This document shows positions 26,402 through 50,823 of a stretch of 64,000 bases of DNA, piece by piece. The translations under genes and the position numbers were made by a program. Positions within the stretch are counted from its first letter, which is position 1. Each line of letters begins with the position of its first letter. Location: contig JACOEK010000002.1 of the NCBI GenBank assembly GCA_024998595.1, positions 62,001 through 126,000 of the forward strand. Direction: 5' to 3'. The notes under the pieces are model-generated. The model saw nothing but the letters and a program-made list of their open reading frames with translations, searched no databases and was not told where the DNA came from. Origin of the DNA: Nitrospira sp. GTDB lineage: Bacteria > Nitrospirota > Nitrospiria > Nitrospirales > Nitrospiraceae.

Positions 26402-26676
26402 TCTCTTATTGCTTCCCCTGGGGCGTGTAGGCGGATGCTCCCAAGCGCACGCGTCCAACGCCCCATCCTTCCATTCACATATAAGGGTTTGAGGTCGAGC
26501 GGCTCTCACTGCGCGCATGGGACGGGCACATTCCGATCGTGCGCATCATCCGAAATCTCCTTATTGCCTTACCTAGGGCGTACAGCCTGGGTGGCCTCCG
26601 AACTGCGCGCGTCCAACGAGGGCTTTCCGAAGCCGCACGTTGCGCGAGCATGGAGGTCACCCAGGCTGTACGCCCC
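26402..26676. repeat. intergenic structured repeat cluster: one full unit (26575-26676) and two degenerate partial units upstream
   Basis: Left arm AGGGCGTACAGCCTGGGTGGCCTCC and right arm GGAGGTCACCCAGGCTGTACGCCCC are inverted repeats around the core GTCCAACGAGGGCTTTCCGAAGCCGCACGTTGCGCGAGCA (26611-26650); partial core GCGTCCAACG near 26451. Confidence 0.8.
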
Positions 26677-26795: not shown

Positions 26796-28424
26796 ATGTC
26801 CCTGCCGGTTGAAAAGTCTGCGTCCGACGAATTGCGCCGGGAGGTGTTGCGGCGGCGCACGTTTGCCATTATTTCCCACCCGGACGCCGGGAAAACCACG
26901 TTGACGGAAAAACTGCTGCTCTACGCGGGAGCGGTCCATCTGGCCGGTGCGGTGCAGGCTCGTTCCACACAACGCCAGGCCAAGTCCGACTGGATGGAGT
27001 TGGAACAGGCGCGCGGCATTTCGATTACGTCCACCATGCTGCAGTTCGATTATCAGGGCGCACGGGTCAACCTGCTCGACACGCCGGGCCACCAGGACTT
27101 CAGCGAAGACACCTATCGTACCCTCATGGCCGTCGATAGCGCTGTGATGGTGCTGGACGGCGCCAAAGGTATCGAGCCGCAAACCAAGAAGCTGTTTGCG
27201 GTCTGTCGCAAGCGCGGCATCCCAATCCTGACCTTCATCAATAAGATGGACCAACCGGGCCGACACCCCTTCGACCTGCTCGATGAGATCGAGCGCACGC
27301 TGGGCATGACGGCAGTCCCGTTCAATTGGCCGATCGGTGAAGGGTCGGGCTTTCAAGGCGTGTACGATTTCCAGAACCGCCAGGTCCTGTTCTTCCAGCG
27401 CACCTCACACAATCAACGCCGCGCGCCGATGACGATCGAAGCCTTCCCCAATCCGAAACTCGCGGAAACCCTCGGCGACGCCTACGGCCCGCTGCAGGAA
27501 GAAATCGGGCTGTTGACGGGCGCCGGCACGTCCTTTGATCGAGACCGCTTCCTGGCCGGTGAGCTCACCCCGGTGTTCTTCGGCAGCGCATTGACCAACT
27601 TCGGTGTCGGGCCGTTTCTCGACGCCTTCACAAAACTTGCGCCGCCTCCCGGGCCGCGACACAGCGCCCAGGGTCTGGTACAGCCCACGGATGAGACCTT
27701 CTCCGGCTTCGTGTTCAAGATCCAGGCAAACATGGATCCGCAGCATCGTGACCGCATGGCGTTCCTCCGCATCTGCTCCGGCCGCTTTGAAAAAGACATG
27801 ATGGTCCATCACGCCAGGCTGGGTCGGAAGATCCGCATGACACGCCCCCATCGCCTCTTCGGACGCGACCGGGAAACCATCGACGAGGCTTACCCCGGAG
27901 ATGTGGTGGGGCTGGTGAATCCTGGCCTGTTTACCATCGGCGATACGCTGACCTCGGATCCGTCACTGACATTCGATCCCATTCCGCACTTCCCGCCGGA
28001 ATGTTTCGGCCTCTTGCGGACGCAGGATATTTCCAAGCACAAACAGTTTCAGAAGGGACTCAAGCAGCTGGAAGAAGAAGGAGTCATGCAGATTTTCTAC
28101 TCCCCGGACCACGTGCGCCGCGAACCGGTGCTGGCCGCGGTGGGAGAACTGCAGTTCGACGTGGTGATGTCCCGCCTGGAGAACGAATACGGAGTCAAAA
28201 CCTCCGTTGAGCGCATGCCCCATAGCCTGGCGCGCTGGATCGTCGGGGATCCGGCAGCCATTGCGGCCGTCTATTGGCCGTCCGACACCGTCCGCCTCGT
28301 GGACCAACAGGGCCGCGCCGTCATGTTATTTACCACCGAACACCTGCTGGCCTATTGCATCAAATCAAACCCGTCTATCAAGTTTCTTCTACGGGAAGAA
28401 GTTGCGCAGGCAGGACCACAATAG
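26796..28424 (+). CDS. prfC: peptide chain release factor 3
   Basis: ISHPDAGKTTLTEKLLLYAGAVHLAGAVQAR, DTPGHQDFSEDTYRTLMAVDSAVMVLDGAKGIE, KMDQPGRHPFDLLDEIE. Confidence 0.97.
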   Translation: MSLPVEKSASDELRREVLRRRTFAIISHPDAGKTTLTEKLLLYAGAVHLAGAVQARSTQRQAKSDWMELEQARGISITSTMLQFDYQGARVNLLDTPGHQDFSEDTYRTLMAVDSAVMVLDGAKGIEPQTKKLFAVCRKRGIPILTFINKMDQPGRHPFDLLDEIERTLGMTAVPFNWPIGEGSGFQGVYDFQNRQVLFFQRTSHNQRRAPMTIEAFPNPKLAETLGDAYGPLQEEIGLLTGAGTSFDRDRFLAGELTPVFFGSALTNFGVGPFLDAFTKLAPPPGPRHSAQGLVQPTDETFSGFVFKIQANMDPQHRDRMAFLRICSGRFEKDMMVHHARLGRKIRMTRPHRLFGRDRETIDEAYPGDVVGLVNPGLFTIGDTLTSDPSLTFDPIPHFPPECFGLLRTQDISKHKQFQKGLKQLEEEGVMQIFYSPDHVRREPVLAAVGELQFDVVMSRLENEYGVKTSVERMPHSLARWIVGDPAAIAAVYWPSDTVRLVDQQGRAVMLFTTEHLLAYCIKSNPSIKFLLREEVAQAGPQ

Positions 28425-49563: not shown

Positions 49564-49666
49564 GGGGGAAGTCTACCGACGTACCTAACGCATGGCAACA
49601 AAACGAAATGGAACTTGAGGAGCGAGGCTCCTTTCCAAGACTAGTCTATGCAGAAACAATGCTCCT

Positions 49667-49881
49667 TCCACTTACTCCTTACCCTCAAGGGGTGGCGTGA
49701 TGCCGTTCCCAACTGCGCAAGTCGAACGAGGCCCTTCTGAGGGCGCGCGTCAAATCTAATACTCCCTCCACTTACTTCCTCCCCTCAAGTGGCAGCCTGA
49801 GTGAGCCCCCACTGCGCGCCGTCCAACGAGGGCTTTCTGAAGCCGCGCGTTGCGCGAGCAAGCGGGCTCACTTAGGCTGCC
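49667..49881. repeat. tandem intergenic structured repeat: degenerate unit plus full unit (49791-49881)
   Basis: GTCGAACGAG at 49721 and GTCCAACGAG at 49821 lie 100 nt apart in matching context; arms GGCAGCCTGAGTGAGCCC (49791-49808) and GGGCTCACTTAGGCTGCC (49864-49881) are inverted repeats. Confidence 0.82.
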
Positions 49882-49887
49882 TCTCCC

Positions 49888-50823
49888 CTAACATTTCGAC
49901 CCATCCGTCCGACAAGCCTCCGCCCGATCGTTGAACCCTGAATTGCGCAGACTCTCATAGACGTTCTGCTGCCGTTCCATTTCGCGATCGTAGGGAGTGC
50001 TCTCCCGTCCTTCCGATTGATACCCCCCGCCGGAATTCCGCCTGGGCTGCCGCGCGACAAGCACTTTGCGCACCTCGGTTTCATAGTAGCCGCGCGTTTG
50101 GGGATCGGGATCTTTCTGGTAGCAGGTGTTGAGGAGCTTGCGGCCTTCGGCGTCATGCCCCAATGCGTAATGGGCAAATCCCACGTTGCAGTAGGCATTC
50201 GGCGTACCCGGATCGAGCCTCAGAACAATCTCAGAATCCTGCAAGGCCAGCTGAAACTGTTCGTGGCGGCTGTAGATTTCGGCGCGGGCTTTATGGGCGC
50301 CGACATGTTTGGGGTCGAAACGGATCGCGGCGGTGAAATCGTCGAGGGCTTCACGGTCCTTGCCTTGATACTCTCGCACGTAGGTCAGCCCGCGGCCATA
50401 GTGCGCCTCGGCACTGGGACGGAGACGAATCGACGTCGAATAGTCCTCCAGCGCCTGCGGAATTTGCCCGAGCATCTTGCCTGCTTTGGCGCGAATGAGA
50501 TAAGCCTCGGCCTTGTTGGGCAAACGGCGAATGACTTCCGACGCGTCCTGCAACGCCTGCGCGTAGGACCCGAGGAAATAAAAGCAGCGGGCGCGAGCGA
50601 GATAGATGCCGGTCTGATTGCGTTTTCGTTCGAGGACGTGGGTGAGGAGTTCGAGGGTTTCCTGATTGCCCTTGCCGTTGGCTTCGCAGTACGCGTCGAT
50701 AGAAGCATCGCCGCAGGCAACCGCCAGGAGGAGACCACACAGCGCGACGATACTGCCCGCACAACGACTGGCTTGCCCCATGCCCGCCTCCCGCGACGGG
50801 CGCATTATCTGCCTGTAGAACAA
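49888..50823 (-). CDS. tetratricopeptide repeat protein
   Basis: Tandem TPR units, e.g. FYFLGSYAQALQDASEVIRRLPNKAEAYLIRAKAGKMLGQIPQALEDYSTSIRLRPSAEAHYGRGL. Confidence 0.88.
   Translation of the reverse strand: MFYRQIMRPSREAGMGQASRCAGSIVALCGLLLAVACGDASIDAYCEANGKGNQETLELLTHVLERKRNQTGIYLARARCFYFLGSYAQALQDASEVIRRLPNKAEAYLIRAKAGKMLGQIPQALEDYSTSIRLRPSAEAHYGRGLTYVREYQGKDREALDDFTAAIRFDPKHVGAHKARAEIYSRHEQFQLALQDSEIVLRLDPGTPNAYCNVGFAHYALGHDAEGRKLLNTCYQKDPDPQTRGYYETEVRKVLVARQPRRNSGGGYQSEGRESTPYDREMERQQNVYESLRNSGFNDRAEACRTDGSKC

What the first reader, a model, noticed from the sequence alone, without database searches (positions are those of the whole stretch)
49667..49881. Second locus of the same repeat, as a 100-nt tandem
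The core GTCCAACGAGGGCTTTCTGAAGCCGCGCGTTGCGCGAGCA differs from the 26-kb copy at only 2 of 40 positions. The arms differ (GGCAGCCTGAGTGAGCCC versus GTACAGCCTGGGTGGCCTCC) yet remain self-complementary, which points to selection on structure. A degenerate unit lies exactly 100 nt upstream (GTCGAACGAGGCCCTTCTGAGGGCGCGCGT), preceded by the same TCCACTTACTyCyT-CCCTCAAG context. Candidates are a REP/BIME-like mobile palindrome, a MITE, or a structured RNA family.
Basis: partly seen in the sequence, partly recalled or inferred. Interest (0 to 1): 0.7.

Follow-up and report, generated by a model that had tools for sequence, protein, structure and literature searches.

The report
Nitrospira-family gene-boundary palindromic repeat
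The marked stretch is one copy of an apparently undescribed family of hairpin-forming DNA repeats that sit at the edges of genes throughout one bacterial family (probably Nitrospira and relatives) and are swapped, nested and replaced between species, most likely as a passively spreading element that also forms a gene-end hairpin.

Summary
Window 49788-49884 is a ~97-nt palindrome: a 54-nt core (49809-49862) between 21-nt arms, matching a copy at 26576-26675. The upstream 100-nt unit (49658-49757) is a truncated copy lacking the right arm. It is a family: about 17 copies here, present in all 28 congeners searched and 33 of 36 sampled genomes of the bacterial family, absent from 122 other genomes of the phylum. 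Arms differ between loci, yet each pairs with its own partner. The right arm abuts a stop codon at about half of the sites; at most others it precedes a rightward gene, often with promoter-like sequence between.

REP/RAYT is not supported: this genome has no Y1 transposase and no copy lies near one in relatives. attC fails too. At the gatC site this element and an unrelated palindrome replace each other at least eight times across the genus while flanking genes do not follow; two species share a near-identical intergenic element (0.7% different) between flanks 13% different. In another genus, a ~142-nt unit carrying the element lies nested inside other palindromes' cores.

Best reading: a non-autonomous, recombination-spread intergenic palindrome (CREE/ERIC-like) forming a gene-boundary hairpin. 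The moving agent and the function are unproven.

The parts
49788..49808 (+). left arm of the complete element (AGTGGCAGCCTGAGTGAGCCC)
   Evidence: inverted repeat I1; fold
49809..49862 (+). conserved core (imperfect hairpin, CCACTGCGCGCCGTCCAACGAGGGCTTTCTGAAGCCGCGCGTTGCGCGAGCAAG)
   Evidence: model R1 76.5 bits; exact 40-mer
49864..49884 (+). right arm, ends 3 nt before the stop codon of the minus-strand TPR gene
   Evidence: gene 49888-50823 (-)
49658..49757 (+). truncated upstream tandem unit (left arm 49689-49710, core part 49713-49750, no right arm)
   Evidence: 100-nt direct repeat; R1 partial match 49726-49750; same junction in relatives
26576..26675 (+). second complete copy, upstream of the prfC-like gene 26796-28424 (+)
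   Evidence: fold; gene
26420..26460 (+). truncated unit in the array before the 26-kb copy (same core type, cut at GTCCAACG)
   Evidence: direct repeat D2
26484..26545 (+). truncated unit of a second core type (ACTGCGCGCATGGGACGGGCACATTCCGATCGTGCGC)
   Evidence: direct repeat D1

Best explanation
A non-autonomous intergenic palindromic element of about 97-100 nt (54-nt core, ~21-nt arms), restricted to one bacterial family. As DNA it folds into a long hairpin and spreads by replacement of whole intergenic segments through short-tract recombination between related genomes, and by entry of units into the tips of existing palindromes, followed by tandem duplication and truncation. As RNA it would form a long hairpin at a gene boundary, most often directly after a stop codon, where it most likely protects or processes the 3' end of the upstream message or insulates the neighbouring transcription unit. 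SHOWN: the family and its restriction, copy-specific arm complementarity, abutment to stop codons with fixed orientation, promoter-like sequence after the right arm at other sites, replacement by an unrelated palindrome at the same site, exchange of the intergenic segment without the flanking genes, nesting. INFERRED: the agent that moves it, that it is transcribed, and what the hairpin does.
For: Own-partner arm pairing at 36 of 41 sites better than any other site's arm and ~18.6 Watson-Crick pairs per copy with all four pair types at most positions. Stop codon within 17 nt of the right arm at about 19 of 41 sites, never at the left arm. Promoter-like score >=9 at 5 of 13 other sites, against 1.6% of shuffles, and 0 of 19 stop-codon sites. 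Switching with an unrelated palindrome at the gatC site at least 8 times, one clade rejected (AU p 1.9e-6), flanking sequence not following the label; 0.7% difference between the genes against 13% in the genes for G006/G008. Nested ~142-nt unit at one point in five palindromes with different outer arms. Many copies sharing one arm sequence in G180.
Against: No mobilising enzyme found and no clean empty site with target duplication. Arms at the gatC site show only one compensatory pair and several broken ones, so strict selection on pairing is not shown there. One relative keeps only a bare left arm and another shows no recognisable element at the prfC site, so the hairpin is dispensable there. 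In the gene direction the sequence after the hairpin is purine-rich with no T-run, which speaks against a simple intrinsic terminator. No expression data.
Confidence: 0.55

Rival explanations
1. A classical REP/REPIN (BIME) moved by a RAYT (TnpA-REP) transposase acting on single-stranded hairpins.
For: Multi-copy extragenic hairpins, tandem clusters with flanks, as in REPINs (PMC3116915).
Against: No Y1_Tnp in this genome nor in 9 congeners with 7 or more copies, nor in G134, G194 and G117; no core within 1.5 kb of 37 Y1 loci; no GTAG/GTGG foot; the conserved part is the centre, not the ends.
Confidence: 0.08
2. A MITE of a conventional DNA transposon: the arms are its terminal inverted repeats and a DDE transposase moves it.
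For: Size, inverted arms, recent expansion with identical arms in G180.
Against: Terminal repeats should be the most conserved part, whereas here arms vary and the core does not; no target-site duplication recognised; insertion positions and orientation are tightly fixed relative to stop codons.
Confidence: 0.15
3. Primarily a host RNA element (3'-UTR hairpin, attenuator or insulator) kept by selection, with mobility incidental.
For: Stop-codon abutment and orientation; an unrelated stop-codon palindrome takes its place at the gatC site and none of 28 species lacks a palindrome there; arm pairing despite sequence change.
Against: Copy number ranges from 1 to at least 36 within the family; several degraded or missing copies; many relic truncated units; strict core sequence is not needed for a plain hairpin.
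Confidence: 0.2
4. Integron attC-like recombination site array.
For: Oriented tandem units, imperfect hairpin with extrahelical bases, a GTCCAAC...GTTGCGC pair resembling R boxes.
Against: The defining AAC/GTT triplets change between copies (CAAC/GTTG, GGAC/GTTC, GGCC/GGTC); units carry no cassette genes; no integron integrase above cut-off in this genome.
Confidence: 0.02

Closest known systems
Correia repeat enclosed element (CREE/NEMIS), Neisseria
   Same: About 105-155 bp, intergenic, inverted repeats around a conserved directional core, genus-restricted, length variants, fragments left behind; forms an mRNA hairpin (PMC2649163)
   Different: CREE ends are conserved and it duplicates its target; here the arms are locus-specific and no duplication was recognised; strong stop-codon abutment here
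ERIC (enterobacterial repetitive intergenic consensus)
   Same: Intergenic imperfect palindrome of ~127 bp with internal insertions at fixed points (own knowledge, not tested)
   Different: ERIC is conserved along its whole length; no sequence relation; different phylum
REP/REPIN (BIME)
   Same: Extragenic hairpins, tandem clusters including flanks (PMC3116915)
   Different: No Y1 transposase in this genome, no GTAG foot, conserved centre instead of conserved ends
Intergenic switching / horizontal regulatory transfer
   Same: Unrelated intergenic sequences replace each other at one site against the gene tree (PMC5890482)
   Different: Described there among isolates of a species for regulatory regions; here between species, and the alternatives at gatC are all palindromes, the two common ones directly abutting the stop codon

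Membership tests
REP/REPIN with RAYT | Y1 (RAYT/TnpA-REP) transposase in the genome | tested here: not met
   PF01797: 0 matches in this 99% complete genome
REP/REPIN with RAYT | repeats flanking the RAYT gene | tested here: not met
   no R1 match near 37 Y1 loci in relatives
REP/REPIN with RAYT | 5' GT[AG]G foot at the hairpin | tested here: not met
   no conserved foot outside the arms in 105 copies
REP/REPIN with RAYT | extragenic, multi-copy palindrome | tested here: met
MITE | conserved terminal inverted repeats shared by copies | tested here: inconclusive
   inverted arms in most copies, but shared only within subfamilies
MITE | target-site duplication | tested here: inconclusive
   none recognised by eye at orthologous sites; no clean empty site found
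MITE | related autonomous transposon | not tested
   only the Y1 family was searched systematically
Integron attC | invariant AAC/GTT triplets | tested here: not met
   triplets vary between copies
Integron attC | integron integrase in the genome | tested here: not met
   TIGR02249 above cut-off only in G007 and G180 of 10 genomes, not here
Rfam RNA family | match to a covariance model | tested here: not met
   (window, and 14 relative loci at E up to 0.5)
Intrinsic terminator | hairpin followed by a T-run in the gene direction | tested here: not met
   purine-rich sequence follows the hairpin in the gene direction at the window site
CREE/ERIC-like intergenic palindrome (works like) | transcribed hairpin that alters stability or processing of flanking mRNA | not testable with these tools
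   needs RNA data

The most novel reading that the evidence does not exclude
Hairpin tips are the landing site: a conserved hairpin module enters the loops of existing gene-boundary palindromes by an unknown, non-Y1 route, so palindromes nest in one another, loci carry their own arms, and whole boundary hairpins are traded between species as interchangeable parts.
Probability: 0.25. Interest if true: 0.75.

Novelty: new variant of a known kind. Interest (0 to 1): 0.55.

Why it matters
Bacterial palindromic repeats are usually explained by RAYT transposases or by transposon-like conserved ends. This family has the opposite design: a conserved centre and locus-specific complementary arms, no Y1 transposase in its own genome, strict gene-boundary placement, and clear exchange of single intergenic segments between species. 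It offers a natural test of whether gene-end hairpins are interchangeable parts, and of how palindromes nest inside each other. It would also give names and boundaries to a large share of otherwise unannotated intergenic DNA in a family that probably includes the nitrite-oxidising Nitrospira.

Tried and rejected
RAYT/REP: rejected on the absent Y1 gene and lack of linkage. attC: rejected on variable triplets and no integron integrase. Known RNA: no Rfam match. Exact-pattern scans of genome contigs and viral contigs found nothing; the genome-contig result is uninformative because near relatives may be left out. I first took locus-specific arms to mean that only the core moves; G180, where most copies share arms, and weak arm similarity between sites argue against that as the general rule. 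A compensatory-change test at the gatC site was weak. Laying the whole genome in the Python box was not available, so copies were analysed as fetched loci. An extra two-hairpin module between core and right arm in some relatives varies in a paired fashion by eye but was not pursued. Literature: no description of this family found; one survey lists 3,788 putative REPs in Nitrospira moscoviensis, and the passages I read describe no such family (PMC12306157).

Full report
Observation. The 40-nt core is present at 49821-49860 and, with two mismatches, at 26611-26650; shuffled sequence gives none. It is the centre of a palindrome with arms 49788-49808 and 49864-49884; the 26-kb copy has 24-nt arms at 96% complementarity. 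Both fold far better than shuffles (z -6.7 and -10.3). The 100-nt upstream unit is real, but it is a truncated copy: left arm and core part, then a junction at GCGCGT|CAAATCT into the next unit. The 26-kb copy is likewise the last of a short array.

Family. The window lies in a 4.23-Mb genome of 15 contigs. A covariance model of the core finds 17 matches at E<=0.01 here; at E<=1 there are 22, several being the same copies read on the other strand. All 28 searched members of the genus have 7-44 matches. Across the phylum 33 of 36 genomes of the same family match and none of 122 others. Genus g21 reaches the scoring limit of 36 per genome.

Anatomy. In 105 distinct copies from 41 site groups the left arm pairs with its own right arm (local score 13.4) and not with right arms from other sites (5.5); for one representative per site, the own partner beats every other at 36 of 41 sites. 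On average 18.6 Watson-Crick pairs form, and most arm positions show all four pair types across sites. Arms from unrelated sites are still somewhat alike (10.7 of 23 against 8.3 for shuffled arms), and in G180 most copies share one arm sequence. So the arms travel with the element and then diverge, at least in the main. Copies were found through the core, which inflates apparent core conservation; but at the gatC site, found by its flanking genes, the core varies only in its loop while the arms vary throughout.

Placement. With an ORF caller written here, about 19 of 41 site groups have a gene on the opposite strand whose stop codon lies within 17 nt of the right arm, in a few cases inside it. 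No site has the left arm next to a left-hand stop codon, so orientation relative to the stop codon is fixed. Where the right-hand gene points away, promoter-like sequence tends to follow the right arm: 5 of 13 such sites reach a score that 1.6% of shuffles reach, and 0 of 19 stop-codon sites do.

Turnover. Downstream of the TPR gene nearly every species has a different arrangement; in most the unit next to the gene is complete and upstream units are truncated, and unit types recur in different species. The prfC site behaves alike; one relative there shows no recognisable element and one keeps a bare left arm. Between an upstream gene and gatC, 8 species carry this element (type I), 19 an unrelated palindrome (type II) and one a third palindrome; none of the 28 examined is without one (one genome was first mislabelled and corrected). 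On a tree of the flanking genes the labels change at least 8 times, type I as one clade is rejected (AU p 1.9e-6), and no consistent association of the flanking coding sequence with the label is seen. G006 and G008 differ by 0.7% between the genes and by 13% in the genes. I read this as exchange of the intergenic segment by recombination, as in described intergenic switching (PMC5890482). Repeated independent insertion at one point is the alternative; the shared sequence outside the arms up to the gatC start codon speaks against it.

Second family and nesting. Type II has 36 matches here and 90 in G180. At most of 30 loci a reading frame ends 24-28 nt before its core, that is, at the foot of its arm. 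In G180 five copies of the type I element lie, with a spacer, as a 141-153-nt unit inside the core of another palindrome at the same point (ACGA|GTTC), with five different outer arms, well paired in two (scores 17 and 12.5) and poorly in three. This supports entry of the unit into existing palindromes, though a composite moving as one piece is not excluded. At the gatC site type II exists in lengths of 84, 109, about 150 and about 228 nt that differ in the tip.

Mechanism. It is not a REP/RAYT system by the tests made, not attC, and not an Rfam family. The closest kinds are CREE and ERIC. The most likely account is a non-autonomous palindrome spread by recombination and by entry into hairpin tips, kept at gene boundaries where it does least harm or serves as a 3'-end hairpin. 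CREE is a precedent for such a hairpin being bound and cut by RNase III in mRNA (PMC2649163). Which enzyme moves it, whether it is transcribed, and what it does are not shown here.

Limits. All sites come from unnamed assemblies; several are fragmented. E-values of the home-made models are rough. Gene calls are heuristic. The site groups are weighted towards the best-scoring copies of a few genomes. The nearest relatives searched are about 12% different in this region, so no recent insertion could be dated.

Noticed in passing
L289-L318; gatC-site loci L206-L228: A second, more abundant palindrome family (type II; 36 matches in this genome, 90 in G180) whose arm begins at the stop codon of the upstream gene at most loci read; not in Rfam.
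   Followed up: partly
L102:1917-1985, L124:3075-3303, L154, L148 and others: A ~70-nt module of two further hairpins (GAGGTGCGCGACGCG...GCCGGCGAGACGGTGAGCCGGC) that appears between core and right arm in some copies and also inside type II-like elements; stems appear to covary.
   Followed up: partly
L224 (G019), L227 (G011): A further ~78-nt insertion in the tip of the type II palindrome at the gatC site, present in two distant species.
   Followed up: no
L080 (G007), L087 (G009): Copies whose right arm matches the site's usual type but whose left arm is unrelated, as if recombined through the core.
   Followed up: no
G134, G141, G162, G180, G194 (genus g21): At least 36 strong copies per genome, many in G180 with one shared arm sequence: a recent expansion and the best place to look for the moving agent.
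   Followed up: partly
L223 (G001): A third, unrelated palindrome (CAGCTATCAGCTTTCAG...) at the gatC site.
   Followed up: no
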